Positions 8,247 through 58,249 of a DNA stretch of 64,000 bases are shown one piece after another. This DNA is from Pseudomonadota bacterium (GTDB lineage Bacteria > Pseudomonadota > Gammaproteobacteria > Burkholderiales > Burkholderiaceae_C): assembly GCA_020161065.1 (NCBI GenBank), contig JAIUPH010000037.1:248001-312000 (forward strand), written 5' to 3'. The position numbers and the translations under genes are program-made. The notes below the pieces were generated by a model. It did no database searches, was not told where the DNA came from, and saw only the letters and a list, made by a program, of their open reading frames with translations. Position 1 is the first letter of the stretch, and every line of letters begins with the position of its first letter.

Positions 8247-9071
8247 ATGAAGACCAGAATCCAAGCGACGATCTTCGGCATGAGCGTGGTGCTGTGCGGC
8301 CTGGCGGCCACGCCGGCGCGGGCCGACCAGCTCGACAGCGTCAAGGCCGCGGGCGTGCTCAAGTGCGGCGTCGGTTCGCAGTACAAGCCGTTCTCCTACG
8401 TGCAGGACCCGAAGACGCGCAAGTTCGTCGGCTACGACATCGACATCTGCGACGCCATCGCCGCCAAGATCGGCGTCAAGCCCGAGCTGGTGTTCATCAC
8501 CGGCGCCACCCGCGTCACCGACTTGCAGTCGGGCCGCACCGACGTGGCGCTGGCCAACCTCACGCACACCGCCGAGCGCGCCAAGCTGGTCGACTTCAGC
8601 CACAACTACTTCGCCACCGACGTACGCGTGATGGTGCCGGCGTCGTCGTCGATCAAGAGCTTCGCCGACTTGAACGGCAAGCGCATGGCCGGCATCAGCG
8701 GCTCCAACCACGAAGTGAAGGTGCCCAAGGTCATCACCGGCGCGGACCTCAAGGTCTTCCCGTCGCCGGCCAACGCCTTCCTGGCGCTGGAGCAGGGCAA
8801 GGTGGAATCGATGGCCGGCGACGAGACCACGCTGATCGGCCTCATCGACGGCAAGCGCGACAAGTGGCGCATCCTCGACCAGCCGGTGGACACGCAGCAG
8901 ATCGGCATCGGCGTGCGCATGGGCGAGCCGCGCATGCTGGCCGCCGTCAACGACACGCTGACCGACCTGGAGAAGTCGGGCCGCGCGGCGCAGATCTTCG
9001 ACCAATGGTTCGGCAAGGACTCCGAGCTGAAGATGAAGCGCGGCTTCACCTTCGCGCCCTACAAGCCCTGA
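8247..9071 (+). CDS. Polar amino-acid ABC transporter, substrate-binding protein
   Basis: 274 residues. Signal peptide about 1-24 ending in TPARA, then a SBP family 3 fold: VLKCGVGSQYKPFSY, VGYDIDICDAIAAKIG and DLQSGRTDVALANLTHT are family signatures. It would capture a polar or sulfur-containing amino acid in the periplasm for the two permeases and ATPase downstream. Good GAGAGG ribosome-binding site. The first ligand strand resembles cystine/glutamine/histidine binders, but the ligand cannot be fixed from sequence. It sits 56 nt after the PLP lyase gene, suggesting transport of that enzyme's substrate. Confidence 0.92.
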   Translation: MKTRIQATIFGMSVVLCGLAATPARADQLDSVKAAGVLKCGVGSQYKPFSYVQDPKTRKFVGYDIDICDAIAAKIGVKPELVFITGATRVTDLQSGRTDVALANLTHTAERAKLVDFSHNYFATDVRVMVPASSSIKSFADLNGKRMAGISGSNHEVKVPKVITGADLKVFPSPANAFLALEQGKVESMAGDETTLIGLIDGKRDKWRILDQPVDTQQIGIGVRMGEPRMLAAVNDTLTDLEKSGRAAQIFDQWFGKDSELKMKRGFTFAPYKP

Positions 9072-24634: not shown

Positions 24635-25942
24635 TCAGCAGCGCGGCGGCGGCGGCGCGGCGGTCGACGGGTCCTGCAGCAGCATCTGCACGTTGCCCAG
24701 CGTGCGCTCGGCGAAGCCGCCTTCGCAATAGCTCAGGTAGAAGTGCCACAGGCGCAGCAGCGCCTCGGGGTAGCCGCGCTCGCGCACCGCGCCGGCGTTG
24801 GCCAGCAGCCGTTCGCGCCAGGCGGCCAGCGTGGTGGCGTAGTGCGGCCCGATGTCTTCCAGGTCGACCAGGCGCAGCCCCGAGGCGCGCACGATGGACG
24901 CGGTGAGCGCGCCCACCGACGGGATGCAGCAGCCGGGGAAGACGTGGCGCTTGATGAAGTCCACCGAATCGCGCGCCGCGGCGTACTGGCGGTCGTCGAT
25001 CGTGATGGCCTGCAGCGCCATCGTGCCGCCGGGCGCCAGCAGCGCCTGGCAGCGGCCGAAGAAGGTGTCGAAGTACTGGTGGCCGACGGCCTCGATCATC
25101 TCCACCGACACCAGCTTGTCATAGCGGCCTTGCAGCTCGCGGTAGTCGGCCAGCAGCAGCGTGATGCGGTCGCCGAGGCCGGCTTCGGCGATGCGCTGCT
25201 GCGCCAGCGCATGCTGCTGGCGCGAGATCGTGGTGGTGGTGACGCGGCAGCCGTGGTGGCGCGCCGCGTGCAGCGCCAGCGCGCCCCAGCCGCTGCCGAT
25301 TTCCAGCAGGTGGTCGCCGGGCCGCAGGGCCAGCTTGCGGCACAGCCGCTCCAGCTTGGCGTGCTGCGCCTGCTCCAGCGTCAGGCCCGGCGTCTCGAAC
25401 AGCGCGCACGAATAGGTCAGCGTCGGGTCGAGGAACAGCTCGAAGAAGTCGTTGCCGATGTCGTAATGCGCGGCGATGTTGCGGCGGCTGCCGCGCCGCG
25501 TGTTGCGCGCCAGCGCGTGCAGGCCGCGCCGCGTCCAGTCGGCCAGGCGCGGCCAGCCGCCGCCGTCCAGGCCGTCGAGCACGCCGCGGTTGACGAGCAG
25601 GATGCGCACCAGCGCCGTCAGGTCGTCGGCCTGCCAGTCGCCGGCCATGAACGATTCGCCGGCGCCGACCGAGCCGCCGAACGCCGCCTCGGCGTAGAAG
25701 CGCCGGTCGCGCACCTGCAGCGTGGCGTGCAGCGTGCAGCGCGCGCTGGCGCGGCCATAGGTTTCGCGGCCGCTCGGGTCGACCACGGTGATGCGGCCAT
25801 GCTCGATCTGCGCCAGCCGGCCGCGCAGCAGCCGCTCGGCGCCGCCGTCGAACCAGCGCTCCAGCGGCCGCCGGCGCGCGCCCTCGGCGTCGTTGCGGAT
25901 CGAGCGGGCGCGGTCGGCCAGGGTGGCGGCGTCGGGTCTCAT
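24635..25942 (-). CDS. Cyclopropane-fatty-acyl-phospholipid synthase family methyltransferase 1
   Basis: 435 residues, close in layout to bacterial CFA synthase: N-terminal lipid-binding region, NIAAHYDIGNDFFELFLDPTLTYSCALF (155-182), SAM-binding LLEIGSGWGALALH (212-225), and VSVEMIEAVGHQYFDTFF, with catalytic-region residues in the KRHVFPGCCIPS stretch. It methylates an unsaturated acyl chain of a phospholipid with S-adenosylmethionine. Last gene of the six-gene operon that starts at 30709; its ATG overlaps the DUF1365 stop by 4 nt. A second, more divergent family member is the first gene. Confidence 0.93.
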   Translation of the reverse strand: MRPDAATLADRARSIRNDAEGARRRPLERWFDGGAERLLRGRLAQIEHGRITVVDPSGRETYGRASARCTLHATLQVRDRRFYAEAAFGGSVGAGESFMAGDWQADDLTALVRILLVNRGVLDGLDGGGWPRLADWTRRGLHALARNTRRGSRRNIAAHYDIGNDFFELFLDPTLTYSCALFETPGLTLEQAQHAKLERLCRKLALRPGDHLLEIGSGWGALALHAARHHGCRVTTTTISRQQHALAQQRIAEAGLGDRITLLLADYRELQGRYDKLVSVEMIEAVGHQYFDTFFGRCQALLAPGGTMALQAITIDDRQYAAARDSVDFIKRHVFPGCCIPSVGALTASIVRASGLRLVDLEDIGPHYATTLAAWRERLLANAGAVRERGYPEALLRLWHFYLSYCEGGFAERTLGNVQMLLQDPSTAAPPPPRC

Positions 25943-26715
25943 GGTCGGTCTCCGGGAAGGGCGGGGTGGTCGTGCACCGGCACGCGCTTGAGCCACAGGC
26001 GCAGCGCCTGCCAGTGGATGGCGGCCGTCACCTGCGCCGTCATCAGCGGAAAGCGCAGCAGCGCGGCGGCCAGCGCCGCGCCGCCGATGGCCCGGCGCTG
26101 CAGCGCCAGCGTGGCGCCGAACACCGGCGCCGCGCCGGCGGCCGCGCCCTGGCGGCGCAGCGCCATGTGCACCGCCAGCGCGGGGCCCGGCGTGCTCAAC
26201 CGCCAGTGGTAGGCGAGGTCCATCGGATGAAAGGGCGAGACGTGCATCGCCTTGTCGCTGCGCGCCAGCAGCCAGGGCGCACCGGGCCCGGCCTGCTGGC
26301 GCAGCACGTAGCAATGGCGCTCGCCCCAGGGGATGTTGTTGACCTCGGCGACCACGGCTTCCAGCTCGCGGCCGGCGGCGTCGAAGCAGTAGTAGAAGCT
26401 GACCGGGTTGAAGCCGTAGCCGAAGTAGCGCAGGTGCGTCAGCAGCCGCACCGGGCCGGCCGGGCGATGGCCGCCGTCGCGCGCCACCAGGTCGCGCACG
26501 GCCTGGTCCAGCGGCTGCGCGGGGTCGCCCAGGTGGTCGCGGCGGTCGAAGCGCGCCGGCGCCGGGCGTTCGACCGACCACAGCCAGCGGCCGCGGAACA
26601 CCTGGTCCAGCTCGGCCAGGTCGAGGTAGAGCATGAACAGCCGGTAGCGGAAGGCATGCGGCCGCGGCGCCAGCCGCCGGTGGTCAAGCCACCCGTGGTA
26701 GATCGCGCTGTTCAT
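25939..26715 (-). CDS. DUF1365 family protein
   Basis: 258 residues starting with MNSAIYHGWLDHRRLAPRPHAFRY, the characteristic DUF1365 opening, then YRLFMLYLDLAELD, LTHLRYFGYGFNPVSFYYCFD and VNNIPWGERHCYVL. The family has no proven activity but very often lies between a FAD amine-oxidase-like gene and a CFA-synthase gene, exactly as here. It overlaps the upstream FAD gene by 32 nt and the downstream methyltransferase by 4 nt, so it is translationally coupled to both. A role in fatty-acid modification is inference from this conserved context. Confidence 0.9.
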   Translation of the reverse strand: MNSAIYHGWLDHRRLAPRPHAFRYRLFMLYLDLAELDQVFRGRWLWSVERPAPARFDRRDHLGDPAQPLDQAVRDLVARDGGHRPAGPVRLLTHLRYFGYGFNPVSFYYCFDAAGRELEAVVAEVNNIPWGERHCYVLRQQAGPGAPWLLARSDKAMHVSPFHPMDLAYHWRLSTPGPALAVHMALRRQGAAAGAAPVFGATLALQRRAIGGAALAAALLRFPLMTAQVTAAIHWQALRLWLKRVPVHDHPALPGDRP

Positions 26716-28008
26716 GGGGGTTGCGGGCGGCGTCGAAGCGCTGCAGTGCCATCAGCGCGCTGACCACGCCGTCTTCATGGAAGCCGTAGCGCCAGTAGGC
26801 GCCGCAGTAGTGGGTGCGGCCTGGCGTGAGGGGCCCGAGCGTCGCCAGCGGTGCGCCGCTGATTTCCGCATGGCGCTGCTGCGCGGCGACGGCGGCGGTG
26901 GTGAAGAGCGGGTGCGCGTAGGTGATGCGGCGCAACACGCGCCGCGGGTCGATGGCCTGCGCGCCGGCATTGAGCGTCACGCACCAGGTGTGGCGCGATC
27001 GCAGGCCCTGCAGGATGTTCATCTGGTAGGTCAGCGCCACGCGCGGCGCCGCGCCCGGCAGCACGTGGTAGTTCCAGGCCGCCCAGGCGCGGCGCGCGCG
27101 CGGCAGCAGCGCGGTGTCGGTGTGCAGCACGGCCTCGTTGCGCTGGTAGGCGAAGGCGCCCAGCACCTCGCGCTCGGCCGGCGAAGGGTCGGCCAGCAGT
27201 TGCAGCGCCTGGTCGGCATGGCAGGCCAGGAAGACGTGGTCGAAGCGCTCGGCGCTGCGGCCGCGCAACTGCAGTTGCACGCCGTCGCCCAGGCGCCGCA
27301 CGTGCTGCACGGGGCTGTTCAGGCGGATGCGGTCGCGCCACGGCGCGATCAGCCGCTCGACGTAGCGCGCCGAGCCGCCGCGCACCACGCGCCAGGTCGG
27401 CCGGTCGTTGACGCTCAGCATGCCGTGCTGGTGCAGGAAGCGCACGAAGAAGCGGGCCGGAAAGTCGAGCATCAGCGCCGGGTCGGTCGACCAGATGGCC
27501 GCGCCCATCGGCACCAGGTAGTCGCTGACGAAGCGGCCGCCGAAGCCATGCTCGCGCAGCAGCTCGCGCAGCGGCGTCTCGGCGCCGCCTTGCTGCAGCC
27601 ACTGCGGCGCCACGCGGTGGAAGCGCAGGATCTCGGCCAGCATGCCGATGAACGAGGGCCGCAGCAGGTTGCGCCGCTGCGCGAACAGGCCGCCGAGCGA
27701 GCTGCCGTTGTATTCCAGCCCGCGCGCGTCGTTGCGCACCGAGAAGCTCATCGAGCTGGGCTGCGAGGCGACGCCCAGCTCGTCGAGCAGCGCGACGAAG
27801 TGCGGGTAGGTGCGGTCGTTGAAGACGATGAAGCCGGTGTCGACGTGCTGCACCTCGTCGCCCAGCTCGATGCGGTGCGTGTGCGCGTGGCCGCCGACGT
27901 GGGCGTCGGCCTCGAACATCGTGATGCGGTGGCCGGCGGCGTGCAGCCGGTGCGCGGCCACGTTGCCGGCGATGCCGCTGCCGACGATGGCGATGGCAAG
28001 CGGCCGCG

Positions 28009-28012
<4 letters not shown>
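26684..28012 (-). CDS. FAD-dependent amine-oxidase-like protein of the CFA/DUF1365 cluster
   Basis: 442 residues. Dinucleotide-binding IAIVGSGIAGNVAAHRL (6-22) with the acidic end at FEAD, then GGHAHTH, NGSSLGGLFAQRRN, and a C-terminal FAD motif near THYCGAYWRYGFHEDGVVSALM. It belongs to the flavin amine oxidase/phytoene desaturase superfamily. In clusters with CFA-type methylases and DUF1365 it is thought to oxidise or desaturate fatty acyl chains; a homologous flavin desaturase acts in furan fatty acid synthesis in Rhodobacter. Start overlaps the desaturase stop by 4 nt (ATGA). Confidence 0.9.
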
Positions 28013-28895
<883 letters not shown>

Positions 28896-28899
<4 letters not shown>

Positions 28900-29669
28900 G
28901 GACGCGGCCTCCCCGGCACGAAGGCGTTGGTGCGGCGCGCATAGTCGGCATAGGCGCTGCGCTGCTGGCCGAGGTGCGCTTCCAGCAGCGGCACGCCCGA
29001 GACCTTGAGCAGCAGCAGCGTCATCAGCAGCGGCGAGACCACGCTCCACCAGCCGCCGCCGGCCGCCGCCACCAGCCAGGCGCCCCACCAGACGCAGCAT
29101 TCGCCGAAGTAGTTGGGGTGGCGCGAATAACGCCACAGTCCGCTGTCCAGCACGCGGCCGCGCTGCGCCGGGTCGGCCCGGAAGCGCGCGAGCTGCCGAT
29201 CGGCCAGCGCCTCGAAGGCGATGCCGAAGGCCATCAACGCCAGGCCGATGCCGTCCAGCATCCGCCAAGGCGCGGCGCTGGCCGCCGCGGCCATCAAGGG
29301 CCAGGCGACCACCCAGCCCAGCAACGCCTGCAGCGCGAACACCAGCCACAGGCTCTTGAGCCCGAAGTGCGGCTGGTGGCGCGCGCGCATGGCCTGGTAG
29401 CGCGGGTCTTCGGGCCGCCCGCGCGCGCGCCAGGCGAGGTGCAGCGACAGCCGCAGCGCCCAGACCAGCGCCAGCGCCAGCAGCGGCCCGGCGCGCGGCC
29501 CGGTCTCGTGCGGCAGCGCCGCCGCGGCCACGGCCGCCGGCAGCCAGACCAGGAACGACCAGGCGATGTCGACGATGCTCACGTCGCGCAGCGGCAGGCT
29601 GGCCAGCCAGACCGCGAAGGCCAGGCCAGCGCCGGCGGCCAGGCCCAGCAAGGCGGCGGCGGCCGTCAT
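28896..29669 (-). CDS. DUF1295 family membrane protein (steroid-reductase-like)
   Basis: 257 residues with about six to seven transmembrane helices and the C-terminal reductase/methyltransferase-like signature LWRYSRHPNYFGECCVWWGAWL followed by KVSGVPLLEAHLG. The family resembles 3-oxo-5-alpha-steroid 4-dehydrogenases and isoprenylcysteine methyltransferases and may use NAD(P)H or SAM. MTAAAALLG at 29669 is chosen because it makes the 4-nt ATGA overlap seen throughout this operon. Probably reduces or modifies a lipid intermediate; the substrate is unknown. Confidence 0.88.
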
Positions 29670-30709
29670 CGGCGCGGCTCGAACAGGTAGTGCGCCACCC
29701 ACCAGGCCTGTCCGCGCTCATAACCGAACAGCTCGGCGCACGACAGGAAGAACAGCCGCCAGCGCATCCACCACAGGCCGGCCTGTTCCGCCCCATAGGT
29801 GGCGGCCAGCAGCGGCCAGACCTCGGCGCGGCGCGCGTCCAGGTTGTCCAGCCAGGCCTGCGCGGTGCGCGCGTAGTGGCTGCCGTCCCAGCGCCAGCGC
29901 GAGACCAGGCGCAGGTCGTCCTGCAGGCGCAGCGCGAGGTCGTCGCTGGGCATCATGCCGCCGGCGAAGAAGTGGCGCGCCATCCAGTCGGAGCCGTCGC
30001 GGTCTTCGAAGGCGTAGGGCGTGCTCCGGTGCACGAACACGTGCATGAAGAAGCGCCCACCGGGCCGCAGCCAGCCGGCCACGCGGCGGAACATCTCCGG
30101 CCAGTTGCGCAGGTGCTCGAACATCTCCACCGAGACCACGCGGTCGAAGCGCTCGCCGTCGGGCGGGCTGAAGCCGGCGACGTTGGCGGTGATGACCTGC
30201 AGGTTGGCCAGGCCGCGGCGCCGCGCCTCGGCCTCGATGTGTTCGCGCTGCGAGTGCGAGTTCGACAAGGCCGTGATGCGGCTGGCCGGAAAGTGCTCGG
30301 CCATCCACAGCGACAGCGAGCCCCAGCCGCAACCCAGTTCCAGCACGCGCTGGCCGTCGGCCAGGCCGGCGCGGCTGCAGGTGGCGTCCAGCGCGGCGGC
30401 CTCGGCGTCGTCGAGCCGCTGCACGCCCGGCGGCCACCAGGCCGAGCTGTACTTGCGGTGCCGCCCCAGCACCTGGGCGAAGAAGGCGGCCGGCAGCTCG
30501 TAGTGCTGTTCGTTGGCCTTCTCGGGCAGCAGCGCGACCGGCGCTTCGCGCATCGCGGCGACGAAAGCCTCGCTGCGCGCGGCGGCCGCGTCGGCATCGC
30601 CGGCGTCGATCTCGGCCAGCCGCTGCTGCAACAGCCGCCGGATGCCGCGGCGGACCAGGCGGTCGGGCACCACGCCGCGCTCGGTGAAGGCCAGGGCAAG
30701 CTGGGACAT
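29666..30709 (-). CDS. CFA-synthase-like SAM methyltransferase 2 (first gene of lipid operon)
   Basis: 347 residues, shorter than CFA synthase and lacking its long N-terminal lipid domain. It has the SAM pocket VLELGCGWGSLSLWMAEHF, VVSVEMFEHLRNWPEMFRR and FFMHVFVHRSTPYAFEDRD. Such proteins are usually annotated as CFA-like or class I methyltransferases in sigma-E/ChrR clusters. MSQLALAF at 30709 is chosen; it lies about 55 nt after the predicted transcription start of the ECF promoter at 30770-30799. Head of the six-gene, fully overlapping operon. Confidence 0.9.
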   Translation of the reverse strand: MSQLALAFTERGVVPDRLVRRGIRRLLQQRLAEIDAGDADAAAARSEAFVAAMREAPVALLPEKANEQHYELPAAFFAQVLGRHRKYSSAWWPPGVQRLDDAEAAALDATCSRAGLADGQRVLELGCGWGSLSLWMAEHFPASRITALSNSHSQREHIEAEARRRGLANLQVITANVAGFSPPDGERFDRVVSVEMFEHLRNWPEMFRRVAGWLRPGGRFFMHVFVHRSTPYAFEDRDGSDWMARHFFAGGMMPSDDLALRLQDDLRLVSRWRWDGSHYARTAQAWLDNLDARRAEVWPLLAATYGAEQAGLWWMRWRLFFLSCAELFGYERGQAWWVAHYLFEPRR

Positions 30710-30769: not shown

Positions 30770-30799
30770 CTTCTACGCGCGCGCGCTGGAATCGGATCA
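30770..30799 (-). promoter_or_regulatory. ECF-sigma promoter for the lipid-modification operon
   Basis: Read leftward: -35 TGATCC (30799-30794), 18-nt spacer, -10 TAGAAG (30775-30770) inside GCGTAGAAGC. Same architecture as the two other copies in this locus. The TGATC -35 core matches what is known for Rhodobacter RpoE (ECF11) promoters. Its -35 forms an inverted repeat with that of the divergent promoter (GGATCAC and GTGATCC). Confidence 0.85.
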
Positions 30800-30815
30800 C
30801 CGCCGTCCGCGGCCG

Positions 30816-30845
30816 TGATCCAATCGGCCATGGACCGCGTACAAG
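30816..30845 (+). promoter_or_regulatory. ECF-sigma promoter for the sigma/anti-sigma operon (autoregulation)
   Basis: -35 TGATCC (30816-30821), 18-nt spacer, -10 TACAAG (30840-30845) inside GCGTACAAGC. Transcription would begin near 30852, giving about an 80-nt leader before the GTG start at 30932. Indicates that the sigma factor activates its own operon. Confidence 0.85.
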
Positions 30846-30931
30846 CGCGCATGGGGCGCGTAAGTCCATCCTGCTGGCGTCCGGCCACCGTGCCGGCGCG
30901 CTGGCGCGCGGTTCCGCCTCGCCTGGGCATC

Positions 30932-31546
30932 GTGACTGCCGCCGACCAACCGATGCCGCCGCTGCCGACCACCGACGAGCTTCACCAATGGCTGCAGGCC
31001 GTCGCCGAGCGCGGCGACCGCGGCGCCTTCGCCGCGCTGTTCCGCCATTTCGCGCCGCGGCTGAAAGGCTTTCTCGTGCGCTCGGGCTGCAGCGAGGCGC
31101 TGGCCGAGGAACTGGTGCAGGAAGCGATGGTGCAGTTGTGGCGCCGCGCCGCCTCGTTCGACCCGGCGCGCGCGCGGCTCTCGACCTGGCTCTATACCAT
31201 CGTGCGCAACCTGCGCATCGACCAGCAACGCCGCCTGGCCGCCCGCCCTGGCGCCGAGGCGGCGACCGACGACGACGCGGCCGACGACGGCTTCGACGCG
31301 CTGGGCGGCGACGCCGCGCTGCAGCCCGAGGCGCAGTTGCTGGCCGCGCAGCGCGAGCGCAAGCTGCGCCGCGCGCTGGCCGCGCTGCCGCCCGAGCAGG
31401 CGCAGGTGCTGCGGCTGTCGTTCTACGAAGAGCACGCGCATCCGGCGATCGCCCGCGACCTGGGCATTCCGCTGGGCACGGTGAAGTCGCGCATCCGGCT
31501 GGCGGTGGCGCAACTGCGGCGCCTGCTCGACGGGCTCGAACCATGA
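30932..31546 (+). CDS. ECF sigma factor, RpoE/ECF11-like
   Basis: 204 residues from GTG 30932. Region 2: FAALFRHFAPRLKGFLVRSG with ELVQEAMVQLWRRAASFDPARARLSTWLYTIVRNLRIDQQRR. Region 4: ALAALPPEQAQVLRLSFYEEHAHPAIARDLGIPLGTVKSRIRLAVAQLRRLL. The 8-nt gap to a ChrR-type anti-sigma gene identifies the pair as the RpoE-ChrR type that answers singlet oxygen and related stress in Rhodobacter. Earlier in-frame ATGs at 30815 and 30830 overlap the predicted promoter and are rejected; ATG 30953 is an alternative start. Confidence 0.92.
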   Translation: MTAADQPMPPLPTTDELHQWLQAVAERGDRGAFAALFRHFAPRLKGFLVRSGCSEALAEELVQEAMVQLWRRAASFDPARARLSTWLYTIVRNLRIDQQRRLAARPGAEAATDDDAADDGFDALGGDAALQPEAQLLAAQRERKLRRALAALPPEQAQVLRLSFYEEHAHPAIARDLGIPLGTVKSRIRLAVAQLRRLLDGLEP

Positions 31547-31553
31547 TCGACCG

Positions 31554-32237
31554 ATGATCCACCACCACCCCGCCGACGACCTGCTGCTGGCGCACGCCGC
31601 CGGCCGGCTGCGGCCCGGCCCGGCGCTGCTGCTGGACGTGCACCTCGAAGGCTGCGCCGACTGCCGCCGACAACGGCAGTTGCTGCACGCGGTGGGCGGC
31701 GCGCTGATCGAAGACGCCGAACCGCTGACGCTGGCGCCCGAAGCCTGGGCGCGCACGCTGGCGCGCATCGACGCCGGCGGGCCGCCGCCGGCGCCACGCT
31801 CCGCGGCCGGTGTCAGGGCGGGCCCCGGCGCGCCGGGCGGCGGGGCGCTGGCGCCGCCGGCCGGCATGAACTGGCCGCAAGCCTTGCGTGCCTGCCGCAG
31901 CGGCGGCTGGCGCTGGATGGGCCCCGGCATGCGCTTCGCGCGGCTGACGCTGCCGGCCGATCCGCAGGCCGGGCTTTTGCTGCTGCGCATCGGCCCCGGG
32001 CGCAGCCTGGCGCGCCACGGCCACGACGGGATGGAACTCACCCAGGTGCTGCACGGCCGCTTCGACGACGGCCGCAGCGGCTTCGGCCCCGGCGACTTCG
32101 ACGCCACCGATGACACGGTGCGCCACCAACCGGTGGTGCAGCCGGGCGGCGAATGCGTGTGCCTGGCCTACGTGGAACGGCGGCTGCGCTTCGAGGGGCG
32201 CGTGGCGGCCTGGATCGGCGGCTGGGTCGGGCTGTAG
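31554..32237 (+). CDS. chrR: ChrR-type zinc anti-sigma factor with cupin domain
   Basis: 227 residues. The N-terminal zinc-binding anti-sigma domain has H30-x3-C34-x2-C37 (DVHLEGCADC) and N-terminal histidines 3-5. The C-terminal ChrR cupin carries His155, His157 and Glu161 (RHGHDGMELTQVLHG) and His191, corresponding to the metal-ligand set of Rhodobacter ChrR needed to sense singlet oxygen. A Gly/Ala/Pro linker (about 75-103) joins the domains. It would hold the sigma factor inactive until the cupin is oxidised. Its stop abuts the convergent DUF2177 stop with no gap. Confidence 0.92.
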   Translation: MIHHHPADDLLLAHAAGRLRPGPALLLDVHLEGCADCRRQRQLLHAVGGALIEDAEPLTLAPEAWARTLARIDAGGPPPAPRSAAGVRAGPGAPGGGALAPPAGMNWPQALRACRSGGWRWMGPGMRFARLTLPADPQAGLLLLRIGPGRSLARHGHDGMELTQVLHGRFDDGRSGFGPGDFDATDDTVRHQPVVQPGGECVCLAYVERRLRFEGRVAAWIGGWVGL

Positions 32238-32711
32238 TCAGGCCGAGACCGCTCTTGGCGGCACGAAGCGGCGCAGCGCGGCATGGGCCGCCGCGGCGCT
32301 GGCTGCGGTGACGAAAGCGCCCCAGGCCAGGTCGACCAGCGTCACGCTCCACGGCCAGCCGCGCAGCGTGGCCTGGTTGGTCAGGTCGTAGGTGGCATAG
32401 GCCACCAGCCCGAAGGCGGCGCCGCGCACCGCGGCGGCGCGAACGCCGGCGGCCGGCAGCACCGCGAACCCGGTGACGCCGGCCAGGTAGATCACGTAGA
32501 AGGCGGCGGCCGCCCGCACGTCGAAACCGGCCTGCATCAAGTGGCCGATCGCCGGGCGGTACAAGCGCTCGGCCATCGTCACCAGCCACAGCGCATCGAG
32601 CGCCAGGAAGGCCACGGCGCCGGCGGCGTAGGCGACGGCGAAAGCGCTCGCAGATGGGCGCGTGGCAGGCTGCTGGTGCTGCCGTGGTGGCGGCGGTGGT
32701 CGTGGGGTCAT
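32238..32711 (-). CDS. DUF2177 family membrane protein, member of the ECF regulon
   Basis: 157 residues from ATG 32711 (a longer start at 32744 lies very near the predicted transcript start). About four transmembrane helices; ALDALWLVTMAERLYRPAIGHLM and YDLTNQATLRGWP are DUF2177 signatures. The family is of unknown function and often sits in sigma-E/ChrR or photooxidative-stress clusters. An ECF promoter identical in form to those of the sigma and lipid operons precedes it, so it belongs to the same regulon despite its separate transcript. Confidence 0.88.
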   Translation of the reverse strand: MTPRPPPPPRQHQQPATRPSASAFAVAYAAGAVAFLALDALWLVTMAERLYRPAIGHLMQAGFDVRAAAAFYVIYLAGVTGFAVLPAAGVRAAAVRGAAFGLVAYATYDLTNQATLRGWPWSVTLVDLAWGAFVTAASAAAAHAALRRFVPPRAVSA

Positions 32712-32759
32712 CGGCGCTGGTCCATTCCGAAGCCGCGCGGCCATCGCGCCGCGCTGCGG

Positions 32760-32789
32760 CTTGTACGCAGCGCGCGTGGCGGCGGATCA
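32760..32789 (-). promoter_or_regulatory. ECF-sigma promoter for DUF2177 gene
   Basis: Read leftward: -35 TGATCC (32789-32784), 18-nt spacer, -10 TACAAG (32765-32760) inside GCGTACAAGC. Third copy of the motif in the locus. Predicted start near 32753, about 40 nt before the preferred ATG. Confidence 0.83.
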
Positions 32790-58156: not shown

Positions 58157-58249
58157 GGAGTCGTGACCGAGTGGCCGAAGGTGCTCCCCTGCTAAGGGAG
58201 TATGTGGGCAAAACCTGCATCGAGGGTTCGAATCCCTCCGACTCCGCCA
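58157..58249 (+). tRNA. tRNA-Ser (anticodon GCU)
   Basis: 93 nt including an encoded CCA end. Acceptor GGAGTCG pairs with CGACTCC, discriminator G, anticodon GCT at 58191-58193 in loop CTGCTAA, a long variable arm (TATGTGGGCAAAACCTGCAT, class II tRNA), T-loop GGTTCGAATCC. Reads AGC and AGU. Downstream of lysC. Confidence 0.98.

What the first reader, a model, noticed from the sequence alone, without database searches (positions are those of the whole stretch)
30770..32789. Three matching ECF-sigma promoters define a local regulon
TGATCC, exactly 18 nt, then TASAAG inside the decamer GCGTASAAGC occurs three times: leftward at 30799-30770 (six-gene lipid operon), rightward at 30816-30845 (sigma/anti-sigma) and leftward at 32789-32760 (DUF2177). 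The extended -35 is CSGTGATCC in all three. An eye scan of other TGATCC sites in the window found none with the matching -10 at this spacing. The TGATC core fits known Rhodobacter RpoE promoters; the precise GCGTASAAGC -10 may be lineage-specific.
Basis: partly seen in the sequence, partly recalled or inferred. Interest (0 to 1): 0.78.

Follow-up and report, generated by a model that had tools for sequence, protein, structure and literature searches.

The report
Singlet-oxygen stress promoters, known type
Three near-identical start signals appear to switch on a bacterial sigma factor, its partner and membrane-fat-modifying genes; it is a well-known kind of stress-response circuit, here packed into one short stretch, with one little-studied membrane protein gene (DUF2177) as an extra member.

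Summary
TGATCC-N18-TASAAG occurs 3 times in the window at the stated places and nowhere else in the 6.29 Mb assembly. Written TGATCC-N16-CGTA, it is the published promoter of ECF11 sigma factors (RpoE-ChrR): ChIP-seq in Pseudomonas syringae, mapped starts in Shewanella. Sigma and anti-sigma best match R. sphaeroides RpoE and ChrR among solved structures, and ChrR keeps the zinc-ligand residues. The target operon holds probable UfaD, UfaO and UfaM (furan fatty acids), a second methyltransferase, DUF1295 and a desaturase. A matrix from relatives alone scores the three sites 25.6-28.4; the next best in the window is 11.3. So the regulon is convincing by sequence and of a known kind. The 'lineage-specific GCGTASAAGC' is not supported: SAAG follows CGTA in 2 of 18 beta and 7 of 41 other distinct sigma-promoter sites. 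Less documented is DUF2177 as a target: 16 of 44 DUF2177 genes in ECF11 loci have their own motif, and DUF2177 co-occurs with DUF1365/UfaO (35 of 41 against 59 of 258 genomes). Chlamydomonas induces DUF2177, DUF1365, DUF1295 and CFA genes under singlet oxygen.

The parts
30770..30799 (-). ECF11-type promoter of the six-gene lipid operon (TGATCC, N16, CGTA, then GAAG)
   Evidence: relatives-only weight matrix 27.4
30816..30845 (+). ECF11-type promoter of the sigma/ChrR operon (autoregulation); back to back with the previous one, 16 bp between the two -35 elements
   Evidence: weight matrix 28.4
32760..32789 (-). ECF11-type promoter of DUF2177
   Evidence: weight matrix 25.6
30932..31546 (+). 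ECF11-type sigma factor (RpoE of the RpoE-ChrR kind); GTG start inferred
   Evidence: best solved-structure match R. sphaeroides RpoE 2q1z, E 6.8e-34; sigma70-ECF TIGR02937 over cut-off
31554..32237 (+). ChrR-type zinc anti-sigma factor with C-terminal cupin domain
   Evidence: TIGR02451 over cut-off, Cupin_7, 2z2s ChrR E 2.8e-31; ligand motifs H30/C34/C37 and H155/H157/E161/H191; H5 aligned with ChrR H6
32238..32744 (-). DUF2177 predicted membrane protein; start at 32711 rather than 32744 is my guess
   Evidence: PF09945 E 2.8e-39; all-helical model from 32711, mean pLDDT 95.4
29666..30709 (-). operon gene 1: CMAS-type SAM methyltransferase (candidate FufM-like, not shown)
   Evidence: PF02353 E 7.1e-39; 32% identity over 235 columns to operon gene 6
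28896..29702 (-). operon gene 2: DUF1295 membrane protein
   Evidence: PF06966 E 4.2e-68
28009..28899 (-). operon gene 3: fatty acid desaturase
   Evidence: PF00487 E 2.8e-22
26684..28012 (-). operon gene 4: flavin amine-oxidase family, probable UfaD
   Evidence: PF01593 (within the longer frame 26684-28951); start; UfaD by family and gene order (Table 2)
25939..26715 (-). operon gene 5: DUF1365, probable UfaO
   Evidence: PF07103 E 2.9e-84 (G000:C26:273960-274703 = window 25960-26703); UfaO holds DUF1365
24635..25942 (-). operon gene 6: CFA-synthase family, probable UfaM
   Evidence: PF02353 E 1.7e-84 (within the longer frame 24635-26581); NCBIfam CFA models matched below their cut-offs

Best explanation
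This is a compact RpoE-ChrR (ECF11) stress regulon. ChrR holds the sigma factor inactive through its zinc domain; singlet oxygen or lipid hydroperoxides lead to loss of ChrR; free sigma then directs RNA polymerase to the three TGATCC-N16-CGTA promoters, turning up its own operon (positive feedback), the six-gene operon that probably makes methylated furan fatty acids in membrane phospholipids, and DUF2177. Shown here: the motif, its rarity in the genome, its conservation at the same places in relatives, and the kinship of sigma and ChrR. Inferred from the literature on relatives: sequestration, the signal, ChrR turnover and the chemistry. DUF2177's role is a guess: a membrane protein acting in or beside the lipid pathway.
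For: Exact sites, only three in the genome, in gene gaps. Published ECF11 motif TGATCCn16CGTA from ChIP-seq with promoter assays, TGATCC/CGTA with mapped starts of rpoE2 and pgpD in Shewanella, TGATC-N16-18-CGTAW in Vibrio. Sigma and ChrR best match 2q1z/2z2s. In the 80 ECF11 loci fetched, a same-strand motif lies within 450 nt before 60 of 87 sigma matches, 32 of 59 UfaD, 9 of 34 CMAS2, 16 of 44 DUF2177, 2 of 60 UfaO, 1 of 46 DUF1295, and 0 of 46 UfaM, 0 of 79 ChrR and 0 of 2 desaturase matches; reversed-pattern control 0 in 1.27 Mb. Back-to-back motifs before sigma in 35 of 80 loci. The relatives-only matrix ranks the three sites first of all window positions. In Stenotrophomonas a divergent nine-gene lipid cluster beside rpoE-chrR rises 165-697 fold without chrR, sigma-dependent.
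Against: No transcript data for this organism. 27 of 87 sigma matches in relatives lack an exact motif (these include second, weaker sigma matches), and none of the seven Bradyrhizobium loci with such a second match shows it. The signal need not be singlet oxygen: in Stenotrophomonas the system served superoxide tolerance, not singlet oxygen, and this genome has no Photo_RC (PufLM) match. Exact counts do not exclude degenerate targets elsewhere: 8 single-mismatch sites to the TASAAG form were not examined.
Confidence: 0.93

Rival explanations
1. The three sites are real ECF11 promoters but only part of a larger, more degenerate regulon spread over the genome, as in P. syringae.
For: ChIP-seq in P. 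syringae tied the motif to 87 of 137 peaks, and tested promoters there include mismatched ones. Here 8 one-mismatch sites to the TASAAG form exist.
Against: Only 4 exact TGATCY-N16-CGTA sites in 6.29 Mb, three of them here; the photolyase locus has none.
Confidence: 0.35
2. DUF2177 is a bystander: its site is recognised but irrelevant, or serves another transcript.
For: Only 16 of 44 DUF2177 genes in ECF11 loci have an exact motif. In the closest relatives it is not kept in place: in L015 the nearest same-strand motif is about 800 nt before DUF2177, and L017 and L046 have none before it. In a phylum-wide draw 4 of 30 DUF2177 loci read (of 42 matches), this window included, have one just upstream.
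Against: 16 of 44 far exceeds background (about 0.005 per gene), at 25-89 nt before the homologous start; opposite-strand motifs 3 of 44; co-occurrence with DUF1365.
Confidence: 0.2
3. Chance motif matches in a GC-rich genome.
For: Two-mismatch matches are abundant (261, control 186).
Against: Exact sites: 3 in the window, 0 in shuffles; the motif recurs at the same places in ECF11 loci of relatives.
Confidence: 0.01

Closest known systems
Rhodobacter sphaeroides RpoE-ChrR (ECF11) singlet-oxygen regulon
   Same: Sigma and ChrR homologues with zinc and cupin ligands; a core regulon with RSP1087, 1088, 1090 (ufaO), 1091 (ufaD), phrB and RSP2144 (ufaM).
   Different: Here the ufaM candidate sits in one operon with ufaD and ufaO candidates (in R. 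sphaeroides it is RSP2144, away from RSP1087-1091); a second methyltransferase, DUF1295 and a desaturase are included; no motif at the photolyase gene; no further exact promoter-like site in the genome apart from one probably coding match.
Stenotrophomonas maltophilia rpoEc-chrR-chrA with smlt2375-smlt2367
   Same: Divergent lipid cluster with two CFA-family genes, desaturase and FAD oxidoreductase, next to rpoE-chrR.
   Different: There chrA follows chrR and a lipocalin is included; here DUF2177 has its own site.
Pseudomonas syringae PSPTO_1043/1042
   Same: Promoter consensus TGATCCn16CGTA.
   Different: Regulon dispersed, includes katG and others; lipid genes in a phrB-led operon.
Chlamydomonas SAK1-dependent singlet-oxygen genes
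   Same: CFA1, CFA2, DUF1365, DUF1295 and DUF2177 genes induced by singlet oxygen (Table 5).
   Different: A eukaryote with another regulator; homology of the algal genes to these was not tested here beyond the shared family names.

Membership tests
ECF11 sigma / ChrR pair | Sigma closest to R. sphaeroides RpoE | tested here: met
   2q1z_A E 6.8e-34, next SigK 4.1e-17; no ECF classification model was run
ECF11 sigma / ChrR pair | Adjacent anti-sigma with zinc motif and cupin domain | tested here: met
ECF11 sigma / ChrR pair | TGATCC-N16-CGTA promoter before the sigma operon | tested here: met
ECF11 sigma / ChrR pair | Activation by singlet oxygen or organic hydroperoxide | not testable with these tools
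   needs an experiment
Furan-fatty-acid operon (UfaM, UfaD, UfaO) | All three enzyme families encoded together | tested here: met
   CFA family, flavin amine oxidase family, DUF1365; the Ufa names rest on family and gene order, not on alignment to the R. sphaeroides proteins
Furan-fatty-acid operon (UfaM, UfaD, UfaO) | Furan fatty acids produced | not testable with these tools
   needs lipid analysis
FufM (dimethyl-furan methylase) | Orthology of operon gene 1 to RPA0924 | not tested
   RPA0924 sequence not at hand; gene 1 is 32% identical to gene 6 over 235 columns; RPA0924 is 26% identical to R. sphaeroides UfaM
Known fold for DUF2177 | Clear structural match | tested here: inconclusive

The most novel reading that the evidence does not exclude
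DUF2177, with DUF1295 and the second CMAS methyltransferase, is an overlooked conserved part of the singlet-oxygen/furan-lipid response, driven by ECF11 promoters in proteobacteria and by SAK1 in green algae, so that one lipid module is shared by bacteria and algae under unrelated regulators.
Probability: 0.4. Interest if true: 0.55.

Novelty: new member of a known kind. Interest (0 to 1): 0.3.

Why it matters
It fixes the likely function of this locus and shows an ECF11 regulon that, at exact-motif level, is confined to one 8-kb stretch in a genome without a Photo_RC match. It also gives a cheap lead on DUF2177, a Pfam family of unknown function, as a target of the singlet-oxygen type of response.

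Tried and rejected
Lineage-specific -10: not supported, see tail counts. Photolyase as a further target: no motif. Horizontal insertion of the locus: no ChrR orthologue was found in the 49 other same-genus genomes drawn (4 weak matches of 19-25 bits, 45 none; 30 of the 50 are at least 90% complete and at most 5% contaminated). The flanks could not show an empty site: around the five PrpF relatives of 68-79% identity, the 60 window proteins compared (frames passing a GC3 filter) gave only other matches of 29-51% identity and no shared neighbour order; none of four flanking window proteins matched any of the 80 ECF11 loci at 1e-10 (empty output). GC shows no clear break and the only tRNA is at 58157. 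So sporadic presence is all I claim. DUF2177 fold: no sequence match in the PDB and no convincing fold match; families not listed are not excluded. The DUF2177 alignment took 35 of the 44 locus proteins plus the window's. Cupin_7 over the phylum (138 of 299 genomes) was not used as a ChrR marker because the family is broader. Family-wide TGATCC-N16-CGTA counts (166 of 200 genomes) were not used: no gene context was read. In one search the sigma gene and the desaturase were given in wrong frames (0 families); the sigma factor was then named, the desaturase. Dufour 2008 and Nam 2013 are not held; what I say of them comes from passages. DUF2177 in print: ChrR+DUF2177 gave 0 papers, DUF2177 alone 3 (passages of two seen, the third only as a listing); no link to ECF11 seen in this open-access library, which lacks most subscription papers.

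The probability of the most novel reading was lowered from 0.45 to 0.4, and the bystander rival raised from 0.15 to 0.2, on checking that the closest relatives do not keep the DUF2177 site in place.

Full report
Observation. In the whole assembly the 18-nt form has the same 3 matches and the reversed control none. The extended forms CSGTGATCC and GCGTASAAGC hold in all three (sequence).

What the motif is. Written from the -35, each site is TGATCC-N16-CGTA. P. syringae PSPTO_1043, an RpoE/ChrR pair, has the consensus TGATCCn16CGTAnnnn from ChIP-seq and promoter tests (passages of PMC5507510). Shewanella RpoE2 uses TGATCC and CGTA elements, with mapped starts for rpoE2 and pgpD (passages of PMC4336711), and Vibrio TGATC-N16-18-CGTAW (passages of PMC5241685). 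So the promoter type was known.

Genes. The sigma factor (30932-31546) matches R. sphaeroides RpoE best among solved structures, and ChrR (31554-32237) matches R. sphaeroides ChrR and passes the NCBIfam cut-off for ChrR. Its HLEGCADC and HGHDGME motifs and the later histidine, with H5 aligned to H6, correspond to the published zinc ligands H6, H31, C35, C38 and H141, H143, E147, H177. The leftward operon has six overlapping genes: CMAS methyltransferase, DUF1295, desaturase, flavin amine oxidase, DUF1365 and CFA-type methyltransferase. UfaO is a DUF1365 protein and UfaD a predicted flavin enzyme, and with UfaM they make furan fatty acids (passages of PMC7380195). A similar divergent cluster in Stenotrophomonas is controlled by its sigma-ChrR pair (passages of PMC11832516).

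Comparison. The motif TGATCY-N16-CGTA lies on the same strand within 450 nt before 60 of 87 sigma matches, 32 of 59 UfaD, 9 of 34 CMAS2, 16 of 44 DUF2177, 2 of 60 UfaO and 1 of 46 DUF1295 matches, and before 0 of 46 UfaM, 0 of 79 ChrR and 0 of 2 desaturase matches (matches without 450 nt of sequence upstream were dropped before counting). Opposite-strand counts are 37 of 87 for sigma and 43 of 59 for UfaD, as expected for divergent promoters, and 3 of 44 for DUF2177. The 27 unassigned of 147 sites give a background of about 0.005 per 450-nt window; the loci are related, so the binomial probability printed there is only a guide. A matrix from 74 relative sites (loci over 9 kb, sites near position 8850), without the window, gives the three sites 28.4, 27.4 and 25.6, the next position 11.3. 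In those 74 sites TGATC, Y and CGTA are fixed by the pattern; G before TGATC (61 of 74) and a purine after TGATCY (74 of 74) are not, and the window sites have both.

The -10 tail. After CGTA, SAAG occurs in 2 of 18 betaproteobacterial and 7 of 41 other distinct sigma-promoter sites, and NNAG in 10 of 18 and 14 of 41. The two betaproteobacterial SAAG cases are L015 and L046, so a narrower kinship signal among few genomes is not excluded.

DUF2177. Of 299 genomes drawn from the phylum, 41 have DUF2177, 94 have DUF1365 and 35 both (Fisher odds ratio 19.7, p 1.4e-14, not corrected for kinship). By my count from the coordinates, 11 of the 35, this genome included, have the two within 7 kb. Against this, 4 of the 30 DUF2177 loci read (of 42 matches), this window included, have an exact motif just upstream, and one more a single-mismatch site; and in L015, L017 and L046, among the closest relatives, the site is not in place. 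In Chlamydomonas, Table 5 of PMC4067076 (passages) lists CFA1, CFA2, DUF1365, DUF2177 and DUF1295 genes as SAK1-dependent singlet-oxygen genes; a review says that its authors are testing for similar fatty acid modification there (passages of PMC8491031). The predicted fold is a confident all-helical model without a convincing relative; invariant residues are listed.

Mechanism. Shown: promoter motifs, gene families and their conservation. Inferred: ChrR sequestration, release by singlet oxygen or lipid peroxides, positive feedback, and furan lipid output. The two -35 elements at 30799 and 30816 are 16 bp apart, so the two holoenzymes would sit side by side and may interfere or couple; this is inference. 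The genome has no Photo_RC match, so any singlet oxygen would come from other sensitisers.

Verdict. A well-conserved regulon of a known kind; the DUF2177 link is the part worth following.

Noticed in passing
window 24635-30709 and 32238-32744: The gene families here (CFA, DUF1365, DUF1295, DUF2177) are also among those induced by singlet oxygen in Chlamydomonas.
   Followed up: partly
genus-level draw, 50 genomes: A ChrR orthologue was found only in the window's genome among 50 drawn from its genus; sporadic presence of the system.
   Followed up: partly
L063, L080, L082, L086, L088, L093, L094 (all titled Bradyrhizobium): Seven loci with a second, weaker sigma match after ChrR and no TGATCY-N16-CGTA site; possibly a different promoter form.
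   Followed up: no
L014, position 1500 (G000:C39:16803): A TGATCA-N17-CGTA site in AT-rich DNA just before an uncharacterised open frame.
   Followed up: no
G460:C1:1215881-1216588: DUF1365 gene with one in-frame TGA.
   Followed up: no
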